NCBI GenBank assembly: GCA_031761405.1
Contig: JASEVX010000114.1
Coordinates: forward strand, 310,001 to 374,000
Length of the DNA stretch: 64,000 nucleotides
Reading direction: 5' to 3'
Source of the DNA: Serripes groenlandicus
Taxonomy: Eukaryota; Mollusca; Bivalvia; Cardiida; Cardiidae
This document shows positions 3,111 to 63,540 of this stretch, piece by piece; position 1 is the stretch's first letter; every line of letters starts with the position of its first letter. Below the pieces are notes generated by a model, which saw only the letters and a program-made list of their open reading frames with translations, made no database searches and was not told the origin of the DNA. The translations under genes were made by a program, and so were the position numbers.

Positions 3111-3786
3111 CGTATTTTTGTGATCGCCTTTTGTCCGTCGTCCGTCGTCAACATTTGCTTGTTAACACTCTAGAGGTAACATATTGCATCCAATATTTAT
3201 ATAAGTTAAAAAGAACATACATTTCCATCAAAACTAACAAGTTTGAAACCGGGTCATGTGGGGTCAAAAACTAGGTCACTCAGCCAAATTTAAGGAAAAT
3301 CTTGTTAACACTCTGGAAGCCATATTTTTTACCTGAGCATGTTAAAACTTAATCAGAATGTTTGTGTTAGCAATATTTCGAATATAGGTCATGTCGGGTG
3401 AACAATTAGGTCACTAGGCCAAATTTAAAGAAAATCTTGTTAACGCTCTGGAAGCCCCATTTTAAACTTGAGCATGTTGAAACTTTTTCAAAAAGGTTGT
3501 CTTGATAATATCTAGGCCTAGTTCGAATATGGGTCATGTCCAGTCAAAAACTAGGTCACTAGGCCAAATTTAAGGAAAATCTAGTTAACACTCTGGAAGC
3601 CACATTTTAAATTTGGGCATGTTGAAACTTTGTCAGAATATTTGTCTTGATAACATCTAGGCCAAATTTGAATATGGGTCATGTCCGGTCAAAAACTAGG
3701 TCACTATGCCAACTTTAAGGAAAATTTGGTTAACGCTCTGGAAGCCACATTTTAAATTTGGTCATGTAAATAGGGCCCTCTTGTTG
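3111..3786 (+). repeat. Tandem-core element, family P2 (TCACTAGGCCAAATTTAAGG)
   Basis: A GTCCGTCGTCCGTCGTC stretch near 3134 is followed by about four modules of roughly 170 bp, each containing GGTCACTAGGCCAAATTTAA, a CTTGTTAACACTCTGGAAGCC phrase and a GAATATGGGTCATGTC phrase. The right end is TAGGGCCCTCTTGTTG at 3771-3786, the hairpin-plus-CTTGTT end seen in other families. No coding potential. It lies in the putative intron between the exons at 2064 and 4028. Confidence 0.7.
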
Positions 3787-8124: not shown

Positions 8125-9575
8125 TATACCCCCAAAAAACAAAGTTTTGGGGGGGTATATAGGAGTCACTGTGTCGGTCGGTCGGTCGGTCGGTCGGTCG
8201 GTATGTCGGTCGGTATGTCGGTCGGTCGGTCGGTCGGTCGGAAGCCATATTTTGTCCGGACCATATCTTAACAATGCAACATAGGATTTGAACGAAACTT
8301 CATAGGATGATACAACACATTGAGAGGAAGTGCGGTGTACAGGAACCATAACTCTATTTTATCTAAATACAAACTTATTGCCCTTTGTTACTTTTTCTTA
8401 TTCGTAGAGTCTTGTCCGGAGCATAACTTTAAAACTAATTGTTGGAATTCAATAAAACTTCATAGGATGATACAACACATTGAGAGGAAGTGCAGTGTAT
8501 AGGAACCATAACTCTATTTAATCTAAATAAAGAGTTATTGCCCTTTGTTACTTTTCCTTGTCCGGAGAATTACTTAATAACTAACAAATGGAATCTAATA
8601 AAACTGCATACAATGGTAGAGCATAATCAGAGGAAGTGCAGTGTACAAGAACCATAACTCTAATTTACATAATTACAGAGTTATTGCCCTTTGTTACTTT
8701 TTCTTATTCGTAGAGTCTTGTCCAGAGCATAACTTTAAAACTGATTCTTGGAATTTATTAAAACTTCATAGGATGATACCACACATTGAGAGGAAGTGCA
8801 GTGTACAGGAACCATAACTCTATTTAATCTAAATACCGAGTTATTGCCCTTTGTTACTTTTTCTTGTCCGGAGAATTACTTAATAACTAACAGATGGAAT
8901 CTAATAAAACTGCATACAATGGTAGAGCATAATCAGAGGAAGTGCAGTGTACAAGAACCATAACTCTAATTTACATAATTACAGAGTTATTGCCCTTTGT
9001 TACTTTTTCTTATTCGTAGAGTCTTGTCCAGAGCATAACTTTAAAACAAATTGTTGGAATTTATTTAACTTCATAGGATGATACAACACATTGAGAGGAA
9101 GTGCGGTGTACAGGAACCATAACTCTATTTTATCTAAATACAGAGTTATTGCCCTTTGTTACTTTTTCTTGTCCGTAGAATTACTTAATAACTAATAGAT
9201 GGAATCCAATAAAACTACATATAATGGTAGAGCATAATCAGAGGAAGTGCAGTGTACAAGAAACATAACTCTACTTTACATAATGACAGAGTTATTGCCG
9301 TTTGTTACTTTTTCATATTCGTAGAGTCTTGTCCGGAGCATAACTTTAAAACTAATTGTTGGAATTTAATAAAACTTCATAGGATGATACAACACATTGA
9401 GAGAAAGTGCAGTGTACAGAAACCATAACTCTATTTAATCTAAATACAGAGTTATTGCCCTTTGTTACTTTTTCTTGTTTACAGAGTTATGGCCCTTTTG
9501 TTGGTCGGTCGTAAACCATATTTTGAGTCAAGGTGCTGTTTTGGGGGTATTTATCATCTTCAGTGATATTTCTAG
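8125..9575 (+). mobile_element. Tandem-core element, family P3, inserted in the envelope-like ORF
   Basis: The left end is a hairpin of C and G runs (TATACCCCCAAAAAAC then GTTTTGGGGGGGTATATAGG), followed by a (GGTC)n stretch at 8173-8242 and by modules of about 170 bp in two alternating types (combined period about 335 bp) carrying TAACTCTATTT and GAGTTATTGCCCTTTGTTAC. The right end GGGGGTATTTATCATCTTCA, TGATA, then CTAG at 9572-9575 contains a five-pair hairpin (TATCA with TGATA) just before CTAG. A short copy with the same two ends lies at 58886-59375. It has no ORF of its own. A 3' hairpin followed by CTAG and an insertion between two T bases resemble Helitron or Helentron ends (family knowledge; assignment is inference). 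Confidence 0.75.
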
Positions 9576-10960
9576 TTTGATATGTTGCCATTTGTTTGTT
9601 GAACTTTCCTCAAAATCAATGACGCTAGAACAAGATGTATAAATAATATGATCAAAATAAAATGCTCATATTCTAGACTGGTTTTCATATCGTTGAAGAA
9701 TGTCACATACGGACTTACTGTTGTTGTTGTTATGTATTTAAGTTCCATTGCATTAACAGGTCTTATTAACGTAGTTGCTAAGATCAACATATTGAGTTTT
9801 CTATATACTACAAAAATACACAATGTATTTATTATAGTCAATATCACACCACCTATTGATATGATTTTGTATATATAGGAATCATAACTCCAGTTTGATC
9901 CTTCATCAAACATTGATTCGGCTAAATTTGCATATACATATTCGTTCTTCTTTGCTTTTTCCGCAATATGTTTCAATGAGATTTCTATGCGTCTTGACTT
10001 CGCTTGAATTTCTCTTGATTTATGCTCAAACATGAGATACCCTGGTAGCTTTATTCCCTCGGGACTGATTCCCGTCTTATTGCTTATTATTTGGTTTATG
10101 ATTGTGTCATTGAAAAAGTGTTTTAAATACTGCATGTTAATCGGATTTATGACTTGAACTTCGTGAGTTGAAAGTATTTCGCATCGTGAAAAATGCGAAG
10201 CCATAACGTGTGTCGAGGTTCGCAAAGAACATTCACACGGCAGTTTAATTAAACAAAATTTACAATCCGACAGCCGTGATATATTTCGGCCTTTACAATC
10301 TAAACTTATATTAGTTTGTTGATATGCCAGCATTTTATTGAAACTTAAACTTATAAATTTTGGTTTAATCATTTGATTAACCATTTTATGGTCACACAGT
10401 TTATTAACTCTAGTGATATTTTCATAAAGAAACAATTCCAAGTAACAGTTCTCTGTTTTTGGCGATTGTAGTGCTATATTCATCTCGCACAACATAAAAT
10501 TCGCCATTTGCACGCATCCCCTTAGAAATTTGTTATCTGCTAGTGAAAAGTATAGATCTTCTTTATTCATTATAAAATACCGCGGATTTTCTGTTAAAAT
10601 ACTAGCGTATGAATCATTAAATTTATCATTTAAGGGAATAGGGAATTGAAATATATCATATATCTCGAACTTTCCCATACGTACAATTGGAAAACTTATG
10701 CTTATATATATCACATTTTCCTGTCGACCATAAATAAACTTTGCATTCTGGTAATAATACGAGGCGTCTTTCTAAAGTAGTTGATACGAATCAAAGTCGG
10801 TCAATAAAACATTCGAAATGTTATTTAATACCGTCTGTAAACGTTCTGCCGGAATAATGAAAGACGATAGTTTACCAGAATTTAACATTTTCATGCCTTT
10901 TAACAGACTTTTTCTGTATATCGATAAATACTCTTTCTGTTATTTTATGCAAGTGGTCTT
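9576..10960 (-). pseudogene. Envelope-like (errantivirus Env / baculovirus F-like) glycoprotein, decayed
   Basis: The longest open part is 380 codons (10714 down to 9572; its first codon is GTG and the frame is open further upstream). Visible features are a Cys-rich ectodomain, several Asn-X-Ser/Thr sites, a motif CLIKLPCECSL, a strongly hydrophobic segment IISIGGVILTIINTLCIFVV and a second one FILIILFIHLVLASLIL near the end. The upstream pattern (GKLSSFIIPAERL, later FPIPL) fits the fusion-protein-like Env of gypsy-type retroelements. Breaks: a TAG at 10774-10772, a frameshift near 10885-10900, and truncation by the element at 8125-9575, which supplies the TAG stop. No gag, pol or LTR is visible nearby, so it is an orphan remnant. 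The family call is by pattern and no joined protein is written. Confidence 0.5.
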
Positions 10961-12319: not shown

Positions 12320-13293
12320 TTACATCAGCCCCGCCCCCTGGCGGCCATAGTTTCCGACCAATCAACTTGGCTTGAAGGAATCTGATAGAGGGTCACTCTA
12401 GGAACATTTCTACAAACTTATTTGAAAATCAGCCTGACACTTTTGGAGGAGAAGATTTTTTAAGTTTTCACTATAGCCATATAAGGCAAAATAGCCCTGT
12501 CCACTGGCGGCCATGTTTTTTGACCAATCAACATGGCTTGAAGGAATCTGAAAATGGGTCACTTAAGGAACATTTCTACAAAATTATTTGAAAATCCGCC
12601 TGACACTTTCGGAGAAGAAGATTTTTTAAGTTTTCGACCAAACAACATGGCTTAAAGGAATCTGATAGAGGGTCACACTAGGAACATTTCTACAAAATTA
12701 TTTGAAAATTGGCCCGACACTTTCGGAGAAGAAGATTTTTTAAGTTTTCACTATAGCCATATAAGGCAAAATAGCCCCGCCCCCCTGGTGGCCATGTTTT
12801 TTTACCAATCAACATGGCTTGAAGGAATCTGATAGAGGGTCATCTAAGGAACATTTCTACAAAATCATTTGAAAATCGGCCAGACACTTTCGGAGACGAA
12901 GATTTTTTAAGTTTTCACTATAGCCATATAAGGCAAAATAGCCCCGCACCCCCCCCCCCCCCTGGCGGCCATGTTTTTTGACCAATCAACATGGCTTGAA
13001 GGAATCTTATAGAGGATCATCCAATGAACATTTCTACAAAATTATTTGATAATCTGCCAACCAGTTTGGGAGAAGAAGAATTTTGAAGTTTTTTCATTTC
13101 GTTGCCATGGAAACCAGAATTCTGCATGTATCCCAAACATTTGAAGGAAATCTGGTGAGGTCATTGAGAGGATGCTTTCTGTGAAGTTTTATCCCAATTG
13201 ACCCACTGGTTACTGAGGAGACGAAGTTGACGCACGATGGACAAAAGGCGAATACAATAACTCACCTTGAGCAGAGCTCAGGTGAGCTAAAAA
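12320..13293 (-). repeat. Tandem-core element, family P1 (GGCGGCCATG... AACATGGCTTGAAGG)
   Basis: About five modules of roughly 155-170 bp contain CCTGGCGGCCATGTTTTT, CCAATCAACATGGCTTGAAG, GGAACATTTCTACAAAATTA and TTTTCACTATAGCCATATAA. The end at 13255-13293 is the hairpin CTCACCTTGAGCAGAGCTCAGGTGAG. GACGCACGATGGAC before it is the P1 form of the GTCC low-complexity stretch on the other strand. Other copies: 24480-24960, 49535-50450, 52762-53340, 53598-54545, 62680-63540. Confidence 0.75.
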
Positions 13294-14002
13294 CGGCCTG
13301 ACCCATTCGGAGGATAAGATTGTTTAAGTTTTCACTATAGCCATATAAGGCAAAATAGCCCTATCCCCTGGCGGCTTTGCTTTTCCACATGACCTGTAGG
13401 ACCATTAAGGAACATTTCTCCAAAATTATTTGAAAATCGGCCTGACACTTTCGTCGGAGAAGATTTGTTTAAGTCGTAAAAGGCAAAGTAGCACCCCCCC
13501 CCCCCCCCCCCCCCCCCCTGGCGGCCATGTTTTTCGACCAATCAATATGGCTTGAAGGAATCTGATAGAGGGTCATCCAAGGAACATTCCTACAAATTTA
13601 TTTGAAAAGCTGCCAACCAGTTTGGGAGAAGAAAACCAGAATTCTGCATGGATCCCAAGCATTTGAAGGAATTCTGGTGAGAACATTATGAGGGTGCTTT
13701 CTGTGAAGTTTCATCCAAATTGACCCTCTGGTTACTGAGGAGAAGATACTGACGGACGCACGGCGGACGCTTGACAGAAGGCGATCACAATAACTCACAT
13801 TGAGCATTTAACCTTATATGGCCCTGTTTCGAAATTGTCCATGATGTGATGGAGATGAATGTTCTGATAAACTTTCATGAAATTTGGATACAAAATATAG
13901 CCTGTAGAGCGTTAACAAGGCAATTGTTGACGAAAGACGGACGCCGGACAAAATGTGATCACAATATCTCACCTTGAGCAATTCACGCACAGGTGAGCTA
14001 AA
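13294..14002 (-). repeat. P1 fragment followed by P2 hairpin end
   Basis: A second P1 stretch with a 25-30 bp poly-C run at 13494-13518 ends near 13810. From about 13814 P2-type sequence (GGCCCTGTTTCGAAATTGTC, AACAAGGCAATTGTTGACGA) runs to the hairpin CTCACCTTGAGCAATTCACG with CAGGTGAGC at 13970-14000. Several short open frames read through here are repeat shadows. Confidence 0.6.
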
Positions 14003-16545: not shown

Positions 16546-17235
16546 ATGTAGTGTTTATGGCGCATCGACAGCTAAGGTCATATAGCGCGCATTAACATTT
16601 AAATGAGTAGTACATGTAGTGTTATATAATAAGATTTTTTTTTTTCAATTTAGCCATATAAGCCCCACTCGAATTTAAAGATTTTTTCCGTTTCGTTTCT
16701 ATTGAAACCAGAATTCTGCATGGATCCCAACAATTTGAAGGAATTCTGGTGAAATCATTGAAGGACACACCACGCACGACGGACACCGGACAAAAGGCGA
16801 TCACAATAATTCACCTTGATCACTGTGTGCTCAGGTGAGCTAAAAATGAATATTTTTGATAGAACTATATAGTGGGAAATGATGGAAGTAGAAACAAGTT
16901 CTAGGTAATGGAGAAAAGAAGTATGATGTAATATACATAGGGGTGAATATATGTATATGAGATGGTCATACAAGAAAATCTCCCAACAACAGGAGGCAAT
17001 ATACGAAATTTGTTGTACCAAAGATAAACACTGATTGTGACTGAATGAATGTTTATCTATGTAATTGGAATGTAATTTAGTATGTTATATAAATAAGAGT
17101 ATATATATTTGGACAGATAAAAAAGTATCACAACTTATAGTAAAGTACAATATCCTTTAAGAAAGAAATTGCAGCATGTATTGGGACAGTGTCGAATGGC
17201 GTTATGTGACTATCGACACTGTAATAATTAGCACG
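16546..17235. repeat. Insertion between the two minisatellite blocks
   Basis: It contains a SINE tail fragment (TATGGCGCATCGACAGCTAA, 16554-16595), a P1-type fragment from about 16620 with GGAATTCTGGTGAAATCATT, and the hairpin end TTCACCTTGATCACTGTGTG with CTCAGGTGAGC at 16811-16840. The remainder to 17235 is unrecognised apart from a short inverted repeat, AGTGTCGA and TCGACACT, near 17190-17221. Confidence 0.6.
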
Positions 17236-22112: not shown

Positions 22113-24115
22113 AACAAGAGGGCCATGATGGCCCTAGATCGCTCACCTGAAATATTCCATGTGATTTCTAATGCAAAACACATCAAGACAATTATTCTAA
22201 CACCGATTCAAAATGCAACCTCTAGAGTGTTTACAATATTTTCATTCTTAAAGTTGAGTGACCTATTTTTTGTTATCTGATAAGACCAATATTCGAACAT
22301 GGACTAGATATCATAAAGACAAACATTCTGACAAAGTTTCAACTTACTCAAAGTAAAAATATGGTCTCCAGAGTTTTAACAATATTTTCCTAAAATTTGG
22401 CCAAGTGACCTTGTTTTAACCCAATATGACCCATTACAAACTTGGCCTAGATATCACTTAGACAAACATTATGACCAAATGTGAATATGCTGAAGCAAAA
22501 CATAAAGCTTCTACATTGTTAGCGAGATTTTCCTTCAATTTGGCCTAGTGCCCTAGTTTTTGAACAGACATGAACAATTTTCGAACTTGGCCTACATATC
22601 ATCAAGACAAACATTCTGATAAAGTTTCAACATGCTCAAGTTAACAAGGCAGCCTCACGAAAGTAAACAATATTTCCCTACATTTGAACTTGACCTAGAT
22701 ATCAATCAGACAAACATTCTGACAAAATGTCAAGCTGCTGAAGCAAAAAATGCGGCCTCCAGAGTGTTAACAGGGTTTTCTTCAATTTGGTCTAATGACA
22801 TGACCCGTATTCGAACTTGGCCTAGATATCATTAAGATAGACAATCTGACCAAATATTAAGCTGCTGAAGTTAACAAGAGCTGTCCATAAGACAGCATGC
22901 TTGACTACCGGTATTTGCCATTTGATTCTATAGTAAACAGGGCTTAATGAGATAAGTGCATGAAAGTACCTTGCATGCCAAACTTTAACCAAATTGTCAA
23001 AGTCAAACAAGGGCCATAATGTGTACTGTATTCATACTTGAGTGATCTATAACTTGACTGTCTGACACCCCTGAAGACATGAATGAAGTTTCAAGTCAAT
23101 ATCATTAGTGGTTACTGAGATATGTCCATGATAGTATCTTGCATGCACAACTTTAACCACAATTTCTTAGTCCAAAAAGGGTCATAATTGAGTCAAAATC
23201 TGTCAAATAAGTGTGTGAAGTTTCAAAGCAATAGCACCTGTGGTTTGTAAGAAAAAGCCTTGCATGAAAAACTTTAATCAACATTTCTAAGTCCAAGAAG
23301 GGGCATACTTGTGTCAAAACCTGATTTAGAGTTTTTGGACTTGTCCTGCAAGGTCACAACTTTAACCACAATTTCCTAGTCCAAAAAGGGTCATAATTGA
23401 GTCAAAATCTGTCAAATAAGTGTGTGAAGTTTCAAAGCAATAGCATCTGTGGTTTGTGAGAAAAAGCCTTGCATGCAAAACTTTAACCAAAATTTGTAAG
23501 ACCAAAAAGGGGTATAATTGTGTCAAAATCTGATAAACAGCTTTTGGATTTGCAACCAAAGTTGCAACGCCAACTCACAAGTGAGTGAACTCACTGTAAT
23601 AGCTCTCCATATTCTTTGAATAGTCTAGCTAAAAATGCAACCTCCAGAGTGTTAACAAGATTTCCCCTCAATTTGGCCTAGTGACCTAGTTTAAACTGCT
23701 AAAGAAAAAATTGCAGCCTCTAGAGGGTAACAAGATTTTCCTTCAATTATAGTGACCTCCTTTGTGATCCATGATTACCCATATTCGAACTTAGCCTACA
23801 TATCATCAAGAAAAACAGTCTGATACAATTTCAACATGAACAAGTTAAAAATGCGGCCTCCAGAGTGTTAACAATGTGTTCATTCAATTTGTTCTAGTGA
23901 CCTAGTTTTTGACCTCATATGGCCCAGTTTCAAACTTGTCCAAGAGTTAATCGAAATGAATCTTATGATAAACTTTCATGAAGATTGGATGCAAAATGTA
24001 GCCTGTAGATTGTTAACAAGGCAATTATTGACAACGCACAACGCACAACGGACGCCAGACAAAATGTGATCACAATAGCTCACCTGGAGCACTTCGTGCA
24101 CAGGTGAGCTAAAAA
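22113..24115 (-). mobile_element. Tandem-core element, family P2, with nested P5
   Basis: The left edge AACAAGAGGGCCATGATGGC is the GGCC hairpin plus CTTGTT end on the minus strand. Modules of about 170 bp follow, with GAACTTGGCCTAGATATCA, GACAAACATTCTGACAAA and GCGGCCTCCAGAGTGTTAAC. The right edge is GACGCCAGACAAAATGTGAT followed by the hairpin AGCTCACCTGGAGCACTTCG with TGCACAGGTGAGCT at 24080-24112. It is interrupted at 22873-23628 by a P5 element. No ORF. Confidence 0.7.
22873..23628 (-). mobile_element. Tandem-core element, family P5, nested
   Basis: The left edge AACAAGAGCTGTCCATAAGA with CAGC is a hairpin plus CTTGTT end. Modules contain TTGCATGCAAAACTTTAACC and AGTTTCAAAGCAATAGCA. The right edge carries ACTCACAAGTGAGTGAACTC and CTCTCCATATTCTTTGAATA. 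The opposite-strand copy is at 48003-49172. P2 modules resume at 23629 with GCTAAAAATGCAACCTCCAG. Confidence 0.65.
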
Positions 24116-34070: not shown

Positions 34071-34506
34071 ACACAACACTTTGAAGGGGTTAAGTATATA
34101 GTTGTGTTGTTATTTTAGTCTAATAGCTCTCGTAAATCCAATTCAAGACTATGTGTATGTCAACTATAAACAGATCTGCATCCGTGGAATCTAATCCGAG
34201 TTCTTAGGATACTATAAGACTTCCCTTTAAAAGTTTCTTTATCTAATGGAACATGCAGTACATAATTGGATCAAACTATGCGGATACCAAGAGTGATCTG
34301 AATCTGTACTACGCCATAGACCTAAAATAACAGTCTTTATGATTTTCGGTTTCTGACTGCGCAGTGTTTTGTGATTCGATTTCCTGCTAAAACAGTAATT
34401 TACTGAACGGAATTACAATTAGCTTAATGTGTTGTTAGATTGTGTATGGCTATATCTAAACAAGCGATGTTTTTACTAAAAGCTGTCCTGAAGGAGGTTT
34501 ATAAAT

Positions 34507-34735
34507 TTATTTATTTATTTATTGGGGTTTTACGCCGCTTTCAACATTATTTCAGTTATATCACGGCGGCAGTTCACTTATTCATGATCCCTGGGTAAAC
34601 AAACCAGTACTAGGCTAGAAAATGTGCCTTGCCCAAGGGCACTCAACCATGACCGTAGTGCCGCGACTGGGGATCGAACCCGGGACTAATGGTTTCGAAC
34701 TCCCCGACGCTAACCTCTCGACCACAGCGGATTCC
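34507..34735 (-). mobile_element. SINE family 2 (GTGGTCGAGAGG head), complete
   Basis: On the minus strand: a tRNA-like head CGCTGTGGTCGAGAGGTTAG with box B GGGTTCGATCCC, body GCCCTTGGGCAAGGCACATT, tail CCGCCGTGATATAACTGAAA and GCGGCGTAAAACCCC with an (AAAT)n end. Target duplications GAGGTTTATAAAT (34494-34506) and GAGGTTTGTAAAT (34736-34748) differ at one base. It sits in the loop of the large inverted repeat. A copy with the same head but another tail is at 49289-49517. Confidence 0.85.
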
Positions 34736-34774
34736 GAGGTTTGTAAATGAGTCACGCTATGCAATAATCGACCT

Positions 34775-35327
34775 TCGGGACTCTTCGACCAGTGACGAAA
34801 CATACTGTTCGGGAGCATTCGCGCAGTCTGATCTGGAGTGTTCGCCATTTTGTCCTACAATCATCCTAGAGGACAGTTATGAACAGAATATGATGGTAAA
34901 AGTATCGTAATTGTAATTAATTACAACACATTCTTACGTCGTGGCTCAATTATGGCACATTGGCGTAAATGCAAGAGGGGGACGGACATACGTGTGACAT
35001 GTAAGAAATGTTTCACAATTGAGTTGATCCGTGTATTTGTTTTCTAAAACAGAAACATTGATATACATTTTATATGAGGTTTTTAAAACACTCTAATGCC
35101 AATAAACTTTAACAACATGACATATTACCGTATCTATGTATTTTCAAAGAATCCTGGAATGAAGCTAACCCTTTTCCCAAATATGAACAATTTGCAACAG
35201 ACGAAATTTAAAAACATCAAGGTTAACATATGGAAAATGCTACACAAAAAAAATAAATTAATAATTGATTATGTTTGAAAACATTGTGGCAAAAGGAGAA
35301 ATTGCTCATCATGATAAATTTCTCCTT
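34775..35327 (-). repeat. Large inverted repeat, right arm
   Basis: Reverse complement of 33519-34070 with few differences visible by eye. The loop between the arms is about 704 bp, of which about 240 bp is the SINE plus its duplication. Short ORFs in both arms are mirror images and not independent genes. Confidence 0.9.
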
Positions 35328-38263: not shown

Positions 38264-38553
38264 CACTAGGCTATATTGTAGAAATATCTTGTTAACACTA
38301 TAGAGATGACACTTTTTACTTGAACAACTTGAAACTTTGTCAGAAAGTTTATCTTGATGATATCTAGGCCAGGTTTGAATATGAGTCATATCAGGTCAAG
38401 GATTAGGTCACGAGGTTGCATTTTTGACTTGAGCATCTTAAAATTTTGTCAGAAAGTTTGTCTTGATGATATTGCCATTGACGCTGAAAGAGTTAAGTCT
38501 TAAAAAGCCCATTCTCAGGTGAGCGATGCCAGGGCCTCATGGCCCTCTTGTTA
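38264..38553 (+). repeat. P2 module with hairpin end
   Basis: It starts with CTAGGTCACTAGGCTATATT, carries ATCTTGATGATATCTAGGCC and ends with the hairpin AGGGCCTCATGGCCCTCTTG plus TTA at 38531-38553, abutting the finger-derived array without a gap. Confidence 0.7.
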
Positions 38554-40079: not shown

Positions 40080-42700
40080 TATAGAGTTAACTGGAACAAT
40101 AATTATCCCCCTTATTTCTTAATTAGAGACCTAAGAAATCCAATTCTCTGCCATGCCTTGTTGATCTTTAACGATATGTGAGATATTCATTTGCCATCTG
40201 AAGAGAAGGTTACCCCAAGATGTCTATGGGTGCTGACTTGAGATAAAGGAATGATATCGAGATAAAGGGAGGGTTGATTTGGTTACTGATGCTTACGAGA
40301 ACAAGCAAATTCATGAAATTTATATCCCCCGCTTGCAGGAAATATTGTAGGAATAAAATCCGCCGAAAGTGACGATCGAACTTGGCCTAGCTGTTAAGGC
40401 ATTTAACCTTGTAACAAAGTTTGGACAAAAATCCGGTTCACATTTGTGGCAGTAATTGCACGGAAACAGCAACAAACGACATTTTTTGTTAAGCAAGGGG
40501 CCATAATTCCACCGAATAAAGTCCGCCGAAAGCGACGATCGAACTTGGCCTAGCCCTTAAGCCATTTAACGTTGTTACCAAGTTTGAAAAAAAAACGTTC
40601 ACATATGTGGCAGTGATTGCATGGAAACAGCAAAAAACGACATTTTTTTGTTAAATAAGGGGCCATAACTACACCGAATAAAGTCCACCGAAAGTGATGA
40701 TCGAACTTGGCCTAGCCCTTAAGACATTTAACCTTGTTACCAAGTTTGAAAAAAAAATGGTTCACATTTGTGGCACTTATTGCACGGAAACAGTTAGAAA
40801 CGTCATTTTCTGTTAAATAAGGGGCCATAACTCCACCAAATAAAGTCCGCCGAAAGTGACGATCGAACTTGGTCTAGCCATTAAGGCATTTAACCTTGTT
40901 ACCAAGTTTGAAAAAAAAAGATTCACACTTGTGGGAGTTATTGTACGGAAACAGCAACAAAGGACATTTTTTGTTAATTAAGAGGCCATAACTCCACCGA
41001 ATAAAGTCCGCCGAAAGTGAGGATCGAACTTGGCCTAGGTTGTTACCAAGTTTTGAAAAAAAAAACGGTTTACATTTATGGTAGTTATTGCACGGAAACA
41101 GCAACAAACGACATTTTTGGCCTAGGCCTTAAGGCATTTAACCTTGTTACCAAGTTTTAAAAAAAAAGTTCACATTTGTGGCAGTTATTGCACGGAAACA
41201 GCAACAAGCGACATTTTTTGTTAAATAAGGGGCCATAACTACACCGAATAAAGTCCACCGAAAGTGACGATCGAACTTGGCCTAGCCCTTAAGGCATTTA
41301 ACCTTGTTACCAAGTTTGAAAAAAAAAAGGTTTACATTTGTGGCAGTTATTGCACGGAAACAGCAACAAACGACATTTTTTGTTAAATAAGGGGCCATAA
41401 CTCCACCAAATAAAGTCCGCCGAAAGTAAGGATCGAACTTGGCCTAGCCCTTAAGGCATTTAACCTTGTTACCAAGTTTGAAAAAAAAAGTTTACATTTG
41501 TGGCAGTTATTGCACGGAAACAGCAACAAGCGACATTTTTTGTTAAATAAGGGGCCATAACTCCACCAAATAAAGTCCGCCGAAAGTAAGGATCGAACTT
41601 GGCCTAGCCCTTAGGGCATTTAACCTTGTTACCAAGTTTGACAAAAACCGGTTAACATTTGTTGCAGTTATTGCACGGAAACGAAGTGTGACAGACGGAC
41701 AGACAGACGGACAAACCCAAATTAACAACCCCCCCTTTTTTCTTCGAAAAAGCGGGGGATAAAAAAGAACAGATTCAGTCTAAGATGGATTAAAAGTAAA
41801 CAGCCATTTCTTCGACCAAGAGGATATATGTGACAGATCATGGTTGAGGACAGCTGCTGAAGTTACAGGATCTTCGACGATAATGTAAATACTGGTGTCA
41901 TCTGGCGAATGTTTGTCTCGATGTCATTGACAATGTCATTAATGAAGATGAGGAAGAGTAATGTCCAATGATAGATCCTTGAGGAACACCAGCGTTGAAA
42001 GTGGGGATTCTTGAAGCAAAGTTTGATAAGACTACCCGTTGTTTGCGATCAGAAAGATAAGAGGAGAGCCAATGGAGAAGGGGACCACTTATACCGAAGG
42101 ATGACAGCTTATGGATGAGACCTTGAGGCCAAACTCGATCGAACGCCTTTGATACATCACAAAAGACAGCCCGTACTTCTTTCCCTTCATATAAGGCTTT
42201 GCTGACGTCATTGTGCAAGAAAGCTAGCTGATTGACGCTAGAATCACCTTTGATGAAACCAGATTGGAAGGGTGTAAGAAGTCTATTCGACATGGCGTAA
42301 TTGTAGAGGTATTTGTGGATGCAGCGCTGCATAGGTTTGCCAAGACAACTTAGAAGCGATATTGGTCTATAATTGCAAGGTTTGGAAGGGTCAGATGTTT
42401 TAAAAATGGGACAGACGTTCGCCAACTTCCAGGGAGAAGGGAAAGTAGAGTTTGTAAGCAATTTGTTAAAATAATTTGAGAGGGTTAATGCAAGTTCTTC
42501 TTTGCCTTCTTTGAGTTTAGGACTAACCTAGTCAGGACCACATGCTTTACTATGATCCATACAGTAAATTGCGTCTCGGACTTCCTGACTCGTCAAAGAT
42601 ATTTCTGAAAGGAAAAAGGATGGAACGTTCTCATCTGTAAGGAGAGGATGTAGCTGGGTATCTATGGTTGATTGTTTGCTAAAGTACGAGTTTAGAAGGT
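40080..42700 (-). pseudogene. LINE reverse transcriptase (CR1/jockey-like), decayed and split
   Basis: On the minus strand, from about 42700: DHSKACGPD then a TAG at 42530-42528, then PSPWKLANVCPIFK, NYRPISLLSCLGKP, the catalytic motif FCDVSKAFDRVW, and AGVPQGS. Near 41960 and 41915 frameshifts follow, with the FADD motif in the next frame, then SHISSWSKKWLFTFN up to 41762. The element at 40323-41761 interrupts. Reading resumes below 40322 with HRHLGVTFSSDGK, an expected downstream RT motif, and INKAWQRIGFLRSL to about 40090. The order of RT motifs is right and the two sides fit together. The endonuclease and 5' part are absent. This is a reverse transcriptase for target-primed integration, non-functional here. 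Confidence 0.8.
40323..41761 (-). mobile_element. Tandem-core element, family P4, inserted in the RT
   Basis: The edges are TATCCCCCGCTT on the left and AGCGGGGGATA on the right. About eight modules of roughly 160 bp contain GGCCATAACTCCACCGAATA, AAGTCCGCCGAAAGTGACGA, TCGAACTTGGCCTAGCCC and CACGGAAACAGCAACAAACG. At the right edge GTGACAGACGGACAGACAGA is the GTCC stretch on the other strand, followed by a C-run / G-run hairpin. No ORF. Confidence 0.8.
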
Positions 42701-46224: not shown

Positions 46225-46680
46225 TTTAGCTAGACTTTTCAAAGTAAAGACTAGCTATACTACTCGCCTCGGCGTGGGCGTCTGCGTCGGTGTCACACCT
46301 TGGTTAAGTTTTTTGTACCAAATCACTTTTTTGTCAAAACCATTACAGATATTGCTGTGAAACTTACAACACTTATTCACCATCAACCGACAAGAGTACA
46401 TAACTCTGTCCATGTTTTTTAACAATTATGACGCTTTTTCGACTTAAAATTTTGGTTAAGTTTTTTTCTTAACCATCATTACCTCCATCAGAAGACTAGA
46501 GTACATAACTCTGTCAATTTTTTTTTTAAAGAATTATGGCCCTTTCTCAATTTAGAATTAAAGTTATTCATACCAAATCAAATTTTTCAAAACGATTAGA
46601 GATATAGCTTAAACACTTCCAAAAATCTTTTTACCATCATTACCTCCACCAACAGCCAAGAGTGCATAATTCACAAACAA
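46225..46680 (+). repeat. Tandem-core element, family P8
   Basis: It begins with the hairpin-like AGCTAGACTTTTCAAAGTAA, AGACTAGCT, then CTCGGCGTGGGCGTCTGCGT, then modules with GAGTACATAACTCTGTC and TTACCATCATTACCTCCA. The 64-codon frame here is a repeat shadow. Confidence 0.55.
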
Positions 46681-46926: not shown

Positions 46927-48002
46927 TATTCCGTGGTAAAGATTTAAGATGTATACTGAGATGTTTTTTAGAACTGTACTGATTCATAGAATTTAATTGT
47001 TGTTACTCTTCCACACGCACTTTGAAACAGTGTTTTCTCCAGAGCCCAGTTCCTGCGTTTTTGACTCAGAAAAATTACAAATAGAGAAAAAACAAATTCA
47101 GTCGGTTGTTGACGTTAACGATAAGACTCGGGGACGAACCAACTTAAATATGAGGCTTGCCTTTCAATTCTCAGCTACAAAATCATGCCACCTAAAATGA
47201 TTGAAATCGACAATGAATCGGATACAAAAATATATTGTTTAAAATCACATGACCAACAGAGATGATGTGAGCTGTTTATAAATGGCCAATCATTGCATGG
47301 TTCATTATCAAAACGATTGCGATTTTGGTTTATGGTTTGGCTTTGAAAGCAAGTGGACAAAGTTAAAAAGAATTTAAGTAGCCTTTTCTGAAGTTTAGAT
47401 ATTGAAATAAAAGTTAATGTCCACTAAAAAAGCTCTTAGTCATAATAAAGTCCTATCACTATTGAAAATCTAAAATGTCATCAGATAGAACTCGCGTTAA
47501 AATTGATCTCGACGTATTAGATGTATATATTTCTTCTTTCTTTTTTTTATCAAAGTGAAGTAAAAGAAATTTGATAGTCAAGTAACTTGTGATAGTTCGA
47601 TAGAAATAAATGATTTCTTAGTTTCAATTGAGCATGACAGGAACTAAAACTGTTGGAATGAATACTTAAATATGGCATTTACTATTTGTAATGTAAATAT
47701 TATTTCCATCTCAACATAGGTTATGATATGAACTGAACAAAATTAGAGCAAAATCCGACCAAGTCATGGATGTTGTGATAAGCAGTCACCTGTCTTAAGC
47801 AGCCTGTTTTATGATTTTCCTTGGTTGGCTGCTGATTGCAAGTTTGGTTGTAATCACTTAACTTGAAAGCAGACTTCCATGTGAAGATCTGCGTAGAAAC
47901 TTTCAATTAATTTCAAAGTCTAGTCATCATGTTCTGCTCATTAACTCTCAGTTATAGCAAGTTGTTATAAAAGGAAAAAAATAGAATACACATGTAATTT
48001 TA
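46927..48002. other. No supported gene
   Basis: No recognisable exon or repeat family. Frames of about 60 codons on both strands lack splice context. CAAAGTCTAGTCATCATG near 47915 resembles the P8 end motif. Confidence 0.35.
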
Positions 48003-49172
48003 GGTTGACTATTCGAAAAATATGAGAGCTTTTACAGTCACTTGTGTGTCGGCGTTGCAACTTTGTTTAAAGTTTTGCATGCAAGGCTTTTTCTCACAAA
48101 CCTCAGATGCTATTGCTTTAAAACTTCACACACTTATTGGACATCATCAAATAACCTTGCAGGACATGTCCCAAAACTCTATATCAGATTTTGACACAAA
48201 AATGCCCCGTTTTTGACTTATAAATTCTGTTTAAAGTTTTGCGTGCAACTACATTAAGAGTCCATATCTCTGTATTTACTTCATGCATTGCATTAAAACT
48301 TTATACAACCCTTCCCAACCATCACACTTATGTAGATTATCAAGTTAGATATCTCTATCCTGCATTTATTGCAAGTTATAGCCCTTTTTTGACTTAGATA
48401 TTCTGGTTAAAGTTGTGCGTGCAACGACATGAAGAGTCCATATATCCTAGTAACTACTTGATGCATTGCATTGAAACTTTATACAACCCTTCCCAACCAT
48501 CACCGCTATATAAACAATCAAGTTTGATAACTCTTTCCAGCATTTAATGCAAATTATGGCCCTTTTTTACTTAGAAATTCTGGTTTAAGTTTTGCATGCA
48601 AGGTACTTTCATGGATATATGTCAGTAACCACTAATAATATTCAGGTTTGTCAGACAGTCAAAGCCAGGAAAACATGGGTAGGTGCACTGACCGCCGTGA
48701 TATGACCAAAGCTGTTGAAAGCGGCGTTAAACCCCAAACAAACAAACAAACAGACAGTCAAGTTAGATAACTCTTGTATGAATTTAGTACAAATTATGGC
48801 CCTTGTTTGACATTGAAAATTTGGTTAAAGTTTTGCATGCATGGTACTATCATGCACATATCTAAGTAACCACTCAGGGATTGATTTAAAACTTCCATAT
48901 AGTCTGTCTTTAAAGGTATCAAACAATCAGGTAAGTTAACTCCTGACTGAATTTATTATAAATTATGGCCCTTTTTGAAGTTAGAAATTGGTTTAAGTTT
49001 TGCATGCAAGGCCTTTTCTCACAAACAGCAGATGCTGTCCAAACAAAACTTATCCAAAATGATTTATAGTTCTATACTATCAAGCCACTATCTCAGTAAC
49101 AACAGTTACTGTTGTCTATAGTAACAAATGGCCAAATAGTCGAGCATGCTGTCTTGCGGACAGTTCTTGTTT
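48003..49172 (+). mobile_element. Tandem-core element, family P5
   Basis: GTGTGTCGGCGTTGCAACTT at the left, modules of about 170 bp with TTTTGCATGCAAGGTACTTT, CAAGTTAGATAACTCT and TTATGGCCCTTTTTTGACTT, and the right end CATGCTGTCTTGCGGACAGT, TCTTGTTTA (hairpin CTGT/ACAG plus CTTGTT). Opposite orientation to the copy at 22873-23628. A truncated SINE is inserted at 48663-48750. Confidence 0.7.
48663..48750 (+). mobile_element. SINE family 5, tail only, with target duplication
   Basis: GGAAAACATGGGTAGGTGCA, CCGCCGTGATATGACCAAAG, GCGGCGTTAAACCCC and an (AAAC)n tail match the end of the SINE at 51401-51670. CAGACAGTCAA occurs at 48652-48662 and 48751-48761, so the 5' truncation happened during insertion. 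Confidence 0.8.
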
Positions 49173-50792: not shown

Positions 50793-52494
50793 TTAGATCA
50801 CCTAGAGCCAAAGGCTCAAGGTGAGCTATTCTGATCACTTTTTGTCCGTCGTCCGTCGTCTGTCCGTCGTCGTTAACTTTTAGCTTTAAACATCATCTCC
50901 TCCTGAACCACATAACCAATTGCATCCAAACTTCACAGGAATGTTCCTTTGGGGGCCCTCTTTCAAAATTGTTCAAAGATTTAAATTCCATTGAGAACTT
51001 TGATTGCTGCGGCATCAGAAAGGGGGCAAAATGTCCGAACTTTAAAAATCTTCTCCTCTGAATCTGCATGTCAGATTCCAATATAGTTTGGTACAAATGT
51101 TCTTTGGGTGACCCTCTACAAAGATTGTTCAAGGCATACTGTTTGGTTGAAAAACATGGCAGTCAGGAAGCATCAGAAAAGGGGCAAAATCATCTCGTTA
51201 ACTTTTAGCTTTAACCATCATCTCTTCCTAAACCACAGGACCAATTTCATCCAAATTTCACAGGAATGTTCCTTTGGTGGCCCTCTTTCAAAATTGTTCT
51301 AAGATTTAAATTCCATTGAGAACTTTGGTTGCTGTGGCATCAGAAAGGGGGCAAAATGTCCAAACTTTAAAAATCTTCCCCTCTGAATCTGCATGTCAGA
51401 AGACCCGGCCGGGTAGCTCAATGGGTAGCGTATCTGACTCGTGATCTGGAGGTCACGGGTTCGATACCCGGTTGCGGCGACATTCTTTCGGGCGATGTTT
51501 TCCATTGCCTCTCACCTCTGATCTATGTGAGAAAGCAGTCAGTGGCTTCGAAAGAATGTTATGTAAGTACTGGTGTGGGAAAGCCAGGAAAACATGGGTA
51601 GGTGCACTGACCGCCGTGATATGACCAAAGCTGTTGAAAGCGGCGTTAAACTCCAAACAAACAAAACAAACTGCATGTCAGATTCCAATATAGTTTAGTA
51701 GAAATGTTCCTTGGGTGACCCTCTACAACGATTGTTCAAGGCATATAGTTTGGTTGGAAAACATGGCAGTCAGGAGGCATCAGAAAAGGGGCAAAATGAC
51801 AAAATTTGGAAATTCCATTTTTTTTTTAAGTCCTTGTCTGATATTAAGAAAATTGAAAAGGAATCTTACTTCAGTGATCCTCTACTTGATTTTTACAAGC
51901 CGTATTGATTGATTACAAAATCATAGCAACCTCGCGTCATCACAAAAGGGGTAAATTGACCTTTTAGCTACAAATGACAACTCCCACCATTCCACTCGAC
52001 CAATTTCAATGTTACTTCACAGGAATGTTCCTTTGATGGTCCTCTTTCAAAATTGTTCAAAGACTTACATTCTATGTAGAACTTTTGTTTCTGCGGCATC
52101 AGAAATTGAGAAAAATACCCAAATTTTAAAAACCTCCATCTCCATAATCCATTTGTCAGATTCCAAGATAATTTGGCAGAAATGTTCTTTGAGTGACTCT
52201 CTACAAAAACTGTTCAAGCCATATTGATTTCGTTCACAAACAGGGCAGCAAAGCCGCATCAGGAAAGTTGCAAAATGACAAAACTTTATAATTCCATTCT
52301 TATTAAAGTTCTTGTTAGATTTCAAGATACAAATGGCTTTTACTGATAAACTATTTCTTTTACTGAGTGTCCACTCCTTGCAGTTTTATTTGAACTCCTG
52401 ATTAAATTTTCACAGATATTTGCAGTTAAATATTTGCTTCTAATTTACTATCATTCAGGTGATCGATTTATGGCCATCTTGGCCCTCTTGTTTA
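50793..52494 (+). mobile_element. Tandem-core element, family P6
   Basis: The left hairpin TAGATCACCTAGAGCCAAAG, GCTCAAGGTGAGCTA is followed by GTCCGTCGTCCGTCGTCTGT and modules with CACAGGAATGTTCCTTTGG, CCTCTTTCAAAATTGTTCAA, GACCCTCTACAAAGATTGTT. The right end TGGCCATCTTGGCCCTCTTG, TTT is the GGCC hairpin plus CTTGTT. A SINE is inserted at 51401-51670. Several frames of 60-85 codons here are repeat shadows. Confidence 0.75.
51401..51670 (+). mobile_element. SINE family 5, complete, with 12 bp target duplication
   Basis: A well-preserved tRNA-like head: box A TAGCTCAATGGGTAG, anticodon-like arm, box B GGTTCGATACC (51458-51468); body with GAGAAAGCAGTCAGTGGCTT; tail CCGCCGTGATATGACCAAAG, GCGGCGTTAAACTCC and (AAAC)n. 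CTGCATGTCAGA at 51389-51400 and 51671-51682 is the target duplication. Confidence 0.9.
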
Positions 52495-53597: not shown

Positions 53598-54545
53598 TAG
53601 CTCCACTGGCTGAAAGCCAGTCGAGCTTATGTCATGGCGAATTGTCCGTCGTGCGTGCGCGCGCGCGTGCGTGCGTGCGTAAACTTTTTCCTTTAAACAA
53701 CTTCTTCTCACTAACCACTTGGCCAATTTGGTTGAAACTTCATAGGAAGCATCCTCTCAATGTCCTCTCTTAAATTCCTTCAAATTTGTTTGATCCATCC
53801 ATAATTCTGGTTTCCATGGCAACCAAAAGAAAAAAATAGTGAAAACTTAAAAAATCTTCTTCTCTGAAAGTGTCAGGCTGATTTTCAAATAATTTTGTAG
53901 AAATGTTCCTTGGGTGACCCTTTATTAGATTCCTTCAAGAAATGTTGATTGGTCGAAAAACATGGTCACCAGAGGGCGGGGCTATTTTGCCTTATATGAC
54001 CATAGTGAAAACTTAAAAAATCTTCTTCTCCGAAAGTGTTCAGCCGATTTTCAAATAATTTTGTAGAAATGTTCATTGGGTGACCCTCTATCAGATTTCT
54101 TCAAGCCATGTTGATTGGTCGAAAAATATGGCCGCCAGAGGGCGGGGCTATTTTGCTCTATATGACCATAGTGAAAATTTAAAAAATCTTCTTCTCCGAA
54201 AGTGTTGAGCAGATTTTCAAATAATTTTGTAGAAATGTTCTTTGGGTGACCCTCTATCAGATTCCTTCAAGCCATGTTGATTGGTTCAAAAATATGGCCG
54301 CCATGGGGTGGGGCTATTTTGCCTTATATGGCTATTGTGAAAACTTAAAAAATCTTCTCCTCCGAAAGTGTTTGGCTGATTTTCAAATAATTTTGCAGAA
54401 ACATTCCTTGGGTGACACTCTACAAGATTCCTTTAAGCCATGGTGGTTGGTAAAAAATATGGCCACTAGGGGGCAGGGCTGTTTGGAGATTTGATTTTTG
54501 CCTTATGGCCGTGGAGCGATACTGGCCCTCTTGGGCCTCTTGTTT
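53598..54545 (+). mobile_element. Tandem-core element, family P1, most complete copy
   Basis: The left hairpin TAGCTCCACTGGCTGAAAGC, CAGTCGAGCTTATG is followed by GTCCGTCGTGCGTGCGCGCG and CGTGCGTGCG, then GAAACTTCATAGGAAGCATC and about four modules of roughly 170 bp (CATGTTGATTGGTCGAAAAA, GGCCGCCAGAGGGCGGGGCT). The right end is ACTGGCCCTCTTGGGCCTCT, TGTTTA: GGCC hairpin plus CTTGTT. No ORF. Confidence 0.75.
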
Positions 54546-57032: not shown

Positions 57033-57792
57033 ACAAGAGGCCCATGCGGGCCTATGCTCTACTGGTATGGTTCTTTGGTCATTTTCAATCCAGAGCATGT
57101 ATGTATGGTGAAGATCGGATAGTAAATGGAGGCTCTTTTGTTTTCACAAGCTGTATTATAGTAATTTTTACAGTTTCATGGGCCATAATCCAGTCTTGCA
57201 TTGGCGGATCTGGCTGGTTTTCAAAAGGAACCAAGCTCTAATCAGTATTTAACTACTATCTAAGTTTGGTGAATATCAGATAGTAAATGGAGCCTCTATT
57301 GTGTTCACATGCTCAATTATAGCAATTTTGACCATTTCAAGGGCCATAATCCAGTCTTGCATGGGCGGATCTGGCTGGTTTTCGAAAGGAACCAAGCTCT
57401 CATGGATATCTAACTACTGTATAAGTTTGGTTGAGATACAATCAAAAGTGAAGACTGTATCGTGTTAACAAGCTCTTTTATAGCAATTTTGACCATTTCA
57501 AGGGCCATAATCCAGTCATACATGGGCGGATCTGGCTGGTTTTCGAAAGGAACCGGGCTCTCATGAATATCTAACTACTGTATAATAAGTTTGGTTGAGA
57601 TACAATCAAAGGTGAAGACTGTATCGTGTTAACAAGCTCTTTTATAGCAATTTTGACCATTTCAAGGGCCATAATCCAGTCATGCATGGGCGGAAGACTG
57701 TATCGTGTTAACAAGAAATTGTTTACGGACGCACGCACGCACGGACAAATCGCCACGACATAAGCCCTTCTGGCCTCTGGCCAGTAGAGCTA
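57033..57792 (-). mobile_element. Tandem-core element, family P7, with 5 bp duplication
   Basis: The left edge ACAAGAGGCCCATGCGGGCC is the GGCC hairpin plus CTTGT end on the minus strand. Four modules of about 155 bp share GGGCCATAATCCAGTCTTGC, GGCGGATCTGGCTGGTTTTC and AGCAATTTTGACCATTTCAA. At the right edge GGACGCACGCACGCACGGAC is followed by the hairpin CTGGCCTCTGGCCAGTAGAG. ACAAG at 57028-57032 and 57793-57797 flanks it. The finger reading (CAC AAG / AGA AAA CAT) continues exactly across. No ORF. Confidence 0.8.
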
Positions 57793-62540: not shown

Positions 62541-62662
62541 CTGCCCTCCAAGGAGCTCCTGGTTGCGTGGTTAGCATTACGACTGACTGGCTGGTGTCAG
62601 GATAAATGGGCATAGTACTGATGAATTACCCAGAAAACATCGTGATAAAACTGAACAAGAGA
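62541..62662 (+). mobile_element. SINE family 3 fragment
   Basis: TTACGACTGACTGGCTGGTG, CAGGATAAATGGGCATAGTA, AATTACCCAGAAAACATCGT and GATAAAACTGAACAAGAG match the other family 3 copies. Confidence 0.6.
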
Positions 62663-62679
62663 TGCAAAAGGTCCAGTAT

Positions 62680-63540
62680 AGCTCCACTGCATTGGTCAAC
62701 AAGGAACATTTCTAAAAAATTATTTTAAAATCTTTCGCATACTTTCGGAGATGAAGATTTTTAAAGTATTCCCTATAGCGATATATAAGGCAAAACATCG
62801 CCGCCCCTGGTAGCCATGTTTTTAAACCAATCAACATGGCTTGAAGGAATCTGAAAGAGTCATCCAAGGAACATTCCTACACAATTATTTGTAAATCGGC
62901 AAGTTGCTTCCGGAGACGATTTTTAAAGTATTCACTTTAGCCATATAATGCAAAACAGCCCCACCCCCCTGGTGGCCATTTTTAAGACTAATCATGATGG
63001 CTTGAAGGAACCTGATAAAGGGTCACCAAATTTAAAATGATTTGGAAAATGGACAGATACTTTTGGAGAAGAAGATTTTTAAAGTTTTCACTATAGCCAC
63101 TATAGCCAAATAATGCAAAACAGCCCCACCTCCCGGTGGTCATGTTTTTCAACAAATCAACGTTGCTTGAAGGAAAATGATAGAGGGTCAAACAAGGAAC
63201 ACCCAAACAAAACTGTTTGGAAATTTGTAAGAAACTTTCGGCGAAGAATATATCCGTATACGGTAAAACAGTCCCGTCATTTTTTACGACCAATCATGAT
63301 GGCTTGAAGGAATCTTATAGAGGGTCACACAAGGAACATTTCAACAACATTATTTGGTAATCGGCCAACAGGTTTGGGAGGTGAACATTTTTTCTTTTCT
63401 TTTTCTATTGGTTGCCATGGAAACTAGAATTTGTGCATGGATGCTTTCTGTGAAGTTTCAACCCAATTGACCAACTGGTTACAGAGGAGAAGATGTTGAC
63501 GCACACAAACACGATGGACAATTCGCTAGTGGAGATAAAA
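62680..63540 (-). repeat. P1 modules, minus orientation
   Basis: About four modules (CCAATCAACATGGCTTGAAG, GGAACATTTC, TTCACTTTAGCCATATAATG) ending near TTGACGCACACAAACACGAT at 63497; the terminal hairpin is not preserved. Confidence 0.65.

What the first reader, a model, noticed from the sequence alone, without database searches (positions are those of the whole stretch)
53598..54545. Many sequence-unrelated tandem-core families share one end-to-end plan
Seen: P1 (53598-54545), P2 (22113-24115, 38264-38553, 3111-3786), P5 (48003-49172, 22873-23628), P6 (50793-52494) and P7 (57033-57792) have different modules, but each ends in a short hairpin, usually GGCC-type, followed by CTTGTT (AGGGCCTCATGGCCCTCTTG, TGGCCATCTTGGCCCTCTTG, GGCCCTCTTGGGCCTCTTGT, CTGTCTTGCGGACAGTTCTTG). 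At the other end a hairpin is followed by a GTCCGTC/GTGCGTGC stretch. P3, P4, P8, P9 and P10 share the GTCC or GTCG stretch. Module size is about 150-170 bp throughout. One mobilisation machinery acting on many different cores, with the hairpin and CTTGTT as recognition, would explain this. Pearl/HINE (Helentron-derived) elements of bivalves have tandem cores; whether these belong there is inference.
Basis: partly seen in the sequence, partly recalled or inferred. Interest (0 to 1): 0.75.

Follow-up and report, generated by a model that had tools for sequence, protein, structure and literature searches.

The report
Jumping DNA with swappable cores
These repeats are short, gene-less jumping elements of a kind already known from oysters; in this genome their two ends mostly match each other while a repeated middle can be shared between different end pairs.

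Summary
The shared plan is real. P1 and seven other complete elements of the window carry a short repeat inside the left end, its complement inside the right end, a right-end hairpin and a tail, usually CTTG, next to T. This is the published layout of HINEs (non-autonomous Helentrons); oyster Cg_HINEs have the same plan. One pattern for right ends of four types finds 39,787 exact places genome-wide (reversed control 0). Paralogous empty sites show no target duplication and a gain of exactly two bases, nearly always T, in 12 of 20 cases. Two results go beyond the finding. Besides hairpin and CTTGTT there is a family-specific inner repeat that matches at both ends (31 of 36 typed pairs; shuffles at most 24), while the 5' hairpin arm often does not match it. 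And one core rides in two end pairs (6,457 and 2,957 places), with 5' and 3' ends of one type in 19 of 20 typed pairs, 9 of 29 being untyped. Oyster work reported each core with one end pair. Rep-helicase-endonuclease genes exist in the genome, but no gene-bearing element with these ends was found. Known kind of element; new families and a modest new rule.

The parts
53598..54543 (+). P1, complete element, 946 bp counting one T at each end
   Evidence: 40 of 40 scored genome copies share both boundaries; sequence
53599..53627 (+). P1 5' subTIR (AGCTCCACTGGCT) and its inverted arm, forming the 5' hairpin
   Evidence: folds at -10.6 kcal/mol, z -3.75
53644..53680 (+). P1 GTCC/GTGCGTGC microsatellite
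   Evidence: sequence
53836..54484 (+). P1 tandem core, 166-bp modules, 3.9 copies
   Evidence: TRF
54507..54518 (+). P1 3' subTIR (GGCCGTGGAGCG)
   Evidence: 9 of 11 positions complementary to the 5' subTIR
54524..54543 (+). P1 3' hairpin GGCCC/GGGCC and tail TCTTG+T
   Evidence: 31-base end exact at 5,805 places
22114..24111 (-). P2, complete element with A-type ends (AGCTCACCTG...CAGGTGAGCG), interrupted by P5a
22874..23631 (-). P5a, complete element nested in P2; the P2 module is its empty site
   Evidence: 40 spanning hits, 37 with exactly 2 bases fewer, 3 with 1
48001..49170 (+). P5b, second P5-type element
50794..52491 (+). P6, complete element with B-type ends (AGATCACCT...AGGTGATCGAT); carries an inserted SINE-like repeat
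57033..57792 (-). P7, complete element with D-type ends (AGCTCTACTGG...CCAGTAGAGCA)
40301..41761 (-). P3, complete element: subTIR ATCCCCCGCTT/AAGCGGGGGAT, AT-rich hairpin, tail GCTTG
   Evidence: hairpin by eye, not folded
8125..9576 (+). P8, complete element: subTIR ATACCCCCAAAA/TTTTGGGGGTAT, GTCG repeats, hairpin TATCA/TGATA, tail TTTCTAG
   Evidence: hairpin by eye, not folded
12327..13288 (-). P1-type core behind an A-type 5' end; 3' end lost
   Evidence: 82% identical to the C446b element over 1,035 bp and 78-81% to P1 in the core
13290..13999 (-). chimera: P2-type 5' leader (about 193 bp) joined to a second leader and P1-type core; 3' end lost
16660..16841 (-). A-type 5' end with a short remnant of core
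38264..38553 (+). truncated P2-type copy, 3' end only
3111..3786 (+). decayed P2-type copy without 5' hairpin
46228..46300 (+). P5-like 5' end (AGCTAGACTTTTC); its 3' end was not identified
62655..62690 (-). decayed P1-type 3' end

Best explanation
They are HINEs: short non-coding elements moved by Helentron-type proteins (Rep nuclease, PIF1-like helicase, endonuclease). Shown here: each complete element has a repeat of about 10-12 bp just inside its 5' end and the complement just inside its 3' end, a 5' arm, usually a microsatellite, a core mostly of about 160-bp modules, and a 3' hairpin plus a tail that is usually CTTG; it sits in oligo-T with no target duplication and, in the typical case, a net gain of two bases; the two inner repeats mostly match family by family; the core is not tied to one end pair. 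Inferred: the endonuclease opens target and donor in T runs, Rep copies one strand from the 5' end, the hairpin and tail stop copying at the 3' end, and the two inner repeats pair with each other on the single strand, which is why they must match each other but may be any sequence. The core is a passenger and can be exchanged between end pairs.
For: Sharp shared ends in 40 of 40 scored P1 copies. Empty sites: 57 pairs of a 3' end with the nearest 5' end upstream, flanks joined; 21 have a held sequence running across the join (at least 74% identity over 80 columns), and the best one lacks exactly 2 bases in 13, or 12 of 20 after dropping e6, a mispaired join; the clearest case is C335 against H1b, 97% over 121 bp. 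T runs: exactly five T before AG in 10 of 10 P1 and 29 of 39 P7 5' ends; 0.55% of window positions follow five or more T. End matching: 7 window families, 67 of 77 positions, the best of 5,040 pairings; 70 typed 3' ends on C1, 36 paired with a typed 5' end, 31 same type, 20,000 label shuffles mean 13.4 and maximum 24. The 5' arm is not what is matched: 4,792 of 8,286 GATC-type 5' ends have the mismatched arm AGGTGAGC. Core sharing: P1-type core joined to A-type 3' end at 6,457 places, to P1-type 3' end at 2,957, controls 0; their 5' ends are A-type in 12 of 17 (none found in 5) and P1-type in 7 of 12 (A-type 1, none 4). Helentron genes: 133 Helitron_like_N matches (150 of 168 candidates scored); two open frames without a stop, scanned in two pieces each, carry Rep, PIF1 and Exo_endo_phos, the last at 35.8 bits in H1a but 23.2 in H1b, just under its cut-off of 24.5. 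Paralogous copies of the H1b locus have a separate OB-fold frame downstream. Longest stop-free stretch in the eight complete elements is 106 codons.
Against: No gene-bearing element with these ends was found: nothing that looked like an end lay within 1.5 kb of 30 Rep domains, and the 3' end of the H1b-type Helentron was not reached. Of 21 spanning sequences 8 did not show a 2-base difference as best hit: 1, 3, 3, 5, 5, 5 and two noise cases. 5 of 36 typed pairs disagree and 34 of 70 3' ends found no typed partner, 7 of them because the P7-type 5' pattern did not complete. P1's 5' repeat fits P7's 3' repeat as well as its own (9 of 11), and P5a's 8 of 11 is reached by 504 of 20,000 random pairs. 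Of 67 P1-type 3' ends on C1 up to 24.2 Mb, 28 have no exact P1-type 5' end within 2.6 kb. The counts are copies, not independent events: the GCTC/GATC difference may have arisen once. P8 has the tail CTAG. Rolling-circle copying and end pairing were not observed.
Confidence: 0.88

Rival explanations
1. Same class (HINE), other mechanism: the ends are read as specific binding sites by several Helentron proteins, one per family; matching of the two ends reflects one protein binding both, not pairing of DNA with DNA. The confidence is for this version of the mechanism within the HINE reading.
For: Rep matches in the genome are many and diverse in score and extent. Families differ in the inner repeat, and related families share similar ones.
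Against: A one-base difference (GCTC against GATC) is present at both ends of the same copies, which suits pairing; but nothing here separates a changed protein from direct pairing.
Confidence: 0.5
2. Canonical Helitrons (5' TC, 3' CTRR, A/T target).
For: 3' hairpin, no target duplication, and P8 ends in CTAG.
Against: No 5' TC; tail CTTG is not CTRR; target is oligo-T.
Confidence: 0.05
3. MITEs, moved by a cut-and-paste transposase.
For: Short, non-coding, inverted repeats near the ends; Pearl was first called a MITE (PMC7492417, passage).
Against: Inverted repeats are subterminal, no target duplication in the empty sites, the two ends are built differently.
Confidence: 0.03
4. Satellite arrays that happen to share flanks through segmental duplication.
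For: Cores are tandem arrays of satellite-like length.
Against: Empty sites, thousands of dispersed copies with the same boundary.
Confidence: 0.01

Closest known systems
Cg_HINE elements of the oyster Crassostrea gigas (PMC7492417; outline with abstract, passages, section 8, and part 1 of 2 of the Discussion seen)
   Same: 5' subTIR, inverted arm, GTCC-type microsatellite, 140-180 bp tandem core, 3' subTIR, palindrome, T-rich site, no target duplication; unrelated cores under related flanks; partner not found.
   Different: There a given core was consistently found with a specific pair of flanks; here one core is found with two end pairs at thousands of places each. Sequences were not compared.
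HINE/DINE-1 and Helentrons (PMC4067079; passages seen)
   Same: subTIRs, 3' stem-loop, TT preference with a variable number of T, empty sites without modification, families defined by the subTIR.
   Different: There autonomous partners share the ends; here none was linked.
Pearl elements of bivalves (CvA, CvE, CvG, DTC84; seen only as described in PMC7492417, PMC11136912 and PMC5139131 passages)
   Same: Short modular elements with up to six core repeats of about 160 bp.
   Different: Sequence relation not tested.
Oyster Helitrons with subTIRs (PMC7992393, passages seen)
   Same: 3' hairpin and, in 257 of 751, subTIRs.
   Different: They have TC at the 5' end, CTAG at the 3' end and mostly sit between A and T; only P8 here has CTAG.

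Membership tests
HINE (non-autonomous Helentron) | matched subterminal inverted repeats | tested here: met
   the classification in PMC4067079 asks for 11 identical bases, met exactly only by P3 and P8 (others 8-10 of 11)
HINE (non-autonomous Helentron) | short palindrome near the 3' end | tested here: met
HINE (non-autonomous Helentron) | inverted arm and microsatellite at the 5' side (DINE-1/Cg_HINE form) | tested here: met
   P5 lacks the GTCC microsatellite
HINE (non-autonomous Helentron) | oligo-T insertion without target duplication, shown by empty sites | tested here: met
HINE (non-autonomous Helentron) | no long coding sequence | tested here: met
   at most 106 codons without a stop
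HINE (non-autonomous Helentron) | shares termini with an autonomous Helentron | tested here: inconclusive
HINE (non-autonomous Helentron) | rolling-circle transposition | not testable with these tools
   no experiment
Canonical Helitron | 5' TC and 3' CTRR | tested here: not met
   5' is T-AG, 3' is CTTG; P8 alone has CTAG
Canonical Helitron | insertion between A and T | tested here: not met
MITE | terminal inverted repeats with target duplication | tested here: not met
Pearl | sequence similarity to CvA/CvE/CvG or DTC84 | not tested
   no Pearl sequence was at hand
Helentron (the H1a and H1b genes) | Rep, PIF1 helicase and endonuclease in one open frame | tested here: met
   endonuclease in H1b just under the curated cut-off

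The most novel reading that the evidence does not exclude
The two inner repeats pair with each other on a single-stranded intermediate, so an end pair works with any sequence as long as its halves match. An end pair is then a free-standing envelope, cores are interchangeable cargo, and one machinery that reads only the shared hairpin and tail could move families with different end pairs.
Probability: 0.3. Interest if true: 0.65.

Novelty: new member of a known kind. Interest (0 to 1): 0.42.

Why it matters
How HINEs come to carry so many unrelated satellite-like cores is left open in the oyster work. Here the question can be put in numbers: the two ends mostly change together, one core is found in two end pairs, and the 5' hairpin arm often does not follow. 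That gives a direct test of whether the ends pair with each other.

Tried and rejected
Autonomous partner: three 13-14 kb stretches around Rep genes were read. H446 (C446) shows no endonuclease domain at E 0.001. H1a and H1b are Helentrons by domains, but a search for identical 12-mers in inverted orientation on the two sides of the reading frames gave only chance or unrelated repeats. The P2 copy beside H1b is an insertion, not its end. Reading on at the C446 copy reached an OB-fold reading frame, with introns by my reading, and a local duplication, not the end. Nothing that looked like an end lay within 1.5 kb of 30 Rep domains; that is my judgement of the printed matches.

The automatic 5'-partner search failed for P5-type and truncated copies. 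In one search element e6 joins the left flank of P5a to the right flank of P2 and should be dropped; four cases with 3 or 5 bases are neighbouring elements, not empty sites, and one is a simple repeat. The species was not settled: among the 120 listed relatives of the H1b protein the nearest with a species name are bivalves, Ruditapes at 54-59% and Mercenaria at 47% identity. Papers on the theme were sought with six searches; none of the passages seen reports one core with two matched end pairs, but only seven papers were opened and none was read whole.

Head-to-tail joints: 5 of 58 3' ends found by a regular expression are followed, with only T between, by a 5' end on the same strand; two of the five join different end types (P7 to A-type in L012, B-type to P7 in L035); two expressions for inverted joints found none. 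They need no special mechanism: the T run at an element's own end is a target of fixed orientation.

Full report
What was checked. The window lies in a 1.76-Gb genome; among the 120 listed relatives of a transposon protein of that genome the nearest with species names are bivalves. P1 at 53598-54545 is a sharply bounded repeat: the 40 copies scored, of 3,745 candidates and counting the window's own, match the query from base 1 to base 947 or 948 at 97-100% identity. Its last 31 bases are found without a mismatch at 5,805 places, and the same pattern read backwards at none.

Anatomy. Read in one orientation, each complete element begins next to T with a repeat of about 10-12 bases (P1 AGCTCCACTGGC; P7 AGCTCTACTGG; P2 AGCTCACCTG; P6 AGATCACCT; P5 AGCTAGACTATT; P3 ATCCCCCGCTT; P8 ATACCCCCAAAA), followed by an inverted arm and usually a GTCC- or GTCG-rich stretch, then the core, then the complement of the first repeat, a hairpin and a tail. 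The tail is CTTG in all but P8, which has CTAG. Eight complete elements cover 9,485 bases of the window, 14.8%, and none has a stop-free stretch above 106 codons. Eight end hairpins were folded, from P1, P2, P5b, P6 and P7: z from -2.47 to -4.30, at most 3 of 200 shuffles as stable. Those of P3 and P8 were seen by eye only.

Exceptions to the finding. 38264-38553 has a right end only; 3111-3786 lacks the left hairpin; P5 lacks the GTCC stretch; the window's P7 copy ends CTTGTC. P1 and P6 cores are weakly related, 65-69% over 190-330 bp, so not every pair of cores is unrelated. Module length is 143-178 bp in most arrays, 209 in P5a, and P6 is not called as an array.

Insertion. P5a sits inside P2, and other P2 modules are its empty site: 40 spanning hits, 37 with two bases fewer and 3 with one. 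One of the 13 is a mispaired join, so 12 of 20 is the fair figure. The two bases are T in nearly all the alignments printed. The rest were 1 (one case), 3 (two), 5 (three) and two noise cases; four of the 3s and 5s are neighbouring elements and one a simple repeat. The clearest case is a P2 element near a Helentron at C1: the paralogous copy at C335 has seven T where the filled copy has six before AG and three after CTTG. So the typical element brings two T, and nothing of the target is duplicated. P1 copies are preceded by exactly five T in 10 of 10, P7 in 29 of 39.

Matching ends. For seven families of the window the 5' repeat and the complement of the 3' repeat agree at 67 of 77 positions, the best of all 5,040 ways of pairing them (an earlier test with five families was best of 120). 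The score does not separate P1 from P7: P1's 5' repeat fits both 3' repeats at 9 of 11. Random pairs from the window reach 9 or more in 55 of 20,000 and 8 or more in 504. Genome-wide, 3' ends of four types with hairpins of the GGCC kind number 39,787, 5' ends 32,657 (GCTCACCT), 8,286 (GATCACCT) and 6,895 (GCTCCACTGG), against controls of 305, 138 and 1. On the first 1.7 Mb of contig C1, 70 typed 3' ends were set against these 5' ends by coordinates: 36 had one upstream on the same strand within 2.6 kb, and 31 of the 36 were of the same type; 20,000 shuffles of the labels averaged 13.4 and never passed 24. Of the 34 without partner, seven are of the P7 type, whose 5' pattern did not complete. 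These are copies and not independent events. Of 67 P1-type 3' ends on C1 up to 24.2 Mb, 39 have an exact P1-type 5' end 757 to 2,215 bp away and 28 have none.

The 5' arm. In the window's P6 both inner repeats read GATC but the 5' arm still reads GAGC. Of the 8,286 GATC-type 5' ends, 4,792 carry the arm AGGTGAGC exactly; among four in held sequence three have GAGC and none GATC. What is kept equal is therefore the pair of ends, more than the 5' hairpin. The count of AGGTGATC arms was not made.

Cores and ends are separable. The element found at C446 has a core 83% identical to that of P1 over 666 bp and 85% over 478 bp in another register, but ends that are those of P2, 81% over 80 bases at the 5' side and 95% over 38 at the 3' side. 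In the window, 12327-13288 has the same core behind an A-type 5' end. Genome-wide the end of the P1-type core is joined to the A-type 3' end at 6,457 places and to the P1-type 3' end at 2,957, controls 0. On the first 2.9 Mb of C1, the first kind has an A-type 5' end in 12 of 17 (none found in 5), the second a P1-type 5' end in 7 of 12 (A-type in 1, none in 4); for the 20 typed pairs the chance of so clean a table is 13 in 125,970 by my own arithmetic. The P1 and P7 5' ends are 82% alike over 61 bases, and no other stretch of the two elements aligns. The window also holds a chimera, 13290-13999, of a P2-type leader and a P1-type-core element.

Machinery. The genome has at least 133 Helitron_like_N matches, 150 of 168 candidates scored, many in long open frames. 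Two frames without a stop, scanned in two pieces each, have DUF6570, Rep, PIF1 and an endonuclease domain, the last clear in H1a (35.8 bits) and just below its cut-off in H1b (23.2 against 24.5). Downstream of the C335 and C446 copies of the H1b locus there is a separate frame; in the C335 copy it has an OB fold (PF21669 above cut-off; single-strand-binding proteins in the structure bank at E 0.001). Such parts are those of a Helentron as described in PMC4067079 (passages). None could be tied to the ends studied here.

Comparison with what is known. Cg_HINE elements of the oyster have the same layout down to the GTCC microsatellite, T-rich site and absence of duplication, with 13 core clusters in 11 elements (PMC7492417; outline with abstract, passages, section 8 and part 1 of 2 of the Discussion). 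The authors found the association of a core with a specific pair of flanks consistent, but related flanks with unrelated cores, and could not relate the elements to an autonomous Helentron. The present families therefore belong to a known kind. New here are the families, the genome-wide numbers, and the core that is shared by two matched end pairs.

Mechanism. From the literature: Helentrons are thought to move a single strand by rolling-circle copying and to insert in TT (PMC4067079 passages). Inferred here: the endonuclease opens T runs, copying starts at the 5' T and stops at the 3' hairpin and tail, and the inner repeats pair with each other. The last step would explain why any sequence will do if its halves match, why the 5' arm may drift, and why cores can change hands. 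A rival of equal or better standing is that each family has its own protein reading both ends.

Verdict.

Noticed in passing
window 15789-16525 and 17236-19843: Long minisatellite of 35-bp units (ATACCAGTCATCTAAACACACACTGTGCATGGTTG), about 94 units by TRF.
   Followed up: no
window 25552-26788: Array of 40-bp units (ACTAAACCTCTACCCCCATTTACTCTATAGTATCAGTTAG) with longer periods of 143 and 263 bp also called.
   Followed up: no
window about 51400-51680 and 48661-48751: SINE-like insertion with a tRNA-like head by eye inside P6, and a piece inside P5b that is 98% identical to it over 92 bp; ARAGORN calls no tRNA in the window. The name is from memory.
   Followed up: partly
window 19948-20643 and on both sides of P7 (56950-57032, 57793-57900): C2H2 zinc-finger-like tandem repeats by eye; repeats at 20212-20325 and 20452-20556 run across the joined flanks of P7 at 71-73% (below the filter).
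   Followed up: partly
window 33780-35080: Inverted repeat with near-identical outer arms by eye; perhaps another transposon.
   Followed up: no
L012, L016, L035: Head-to-tail elements joined only by TTT or TTTTT, also between different end types (P7 to A-type, B-type to P7).
   Followed up: partly
L071-L072 (C1:27.26 Mb): Helentron reading frame of 3,135 aa with a 1,357-bp internal duplication at 98.9% and a tract that repeats at multiples of about 63 bp.
   Followed up: no
L077-L078 (C446:31.33 Mb): Tandem duplication of about 1.4 kb covering the last exon-like piece of the OB-fold gene.
   Followed up: no
window 8125-9576: P8 combines Helentron-like subTIRs with a Helitron-like CTAG tail; may be an intermediate type.
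   Followed up: partly
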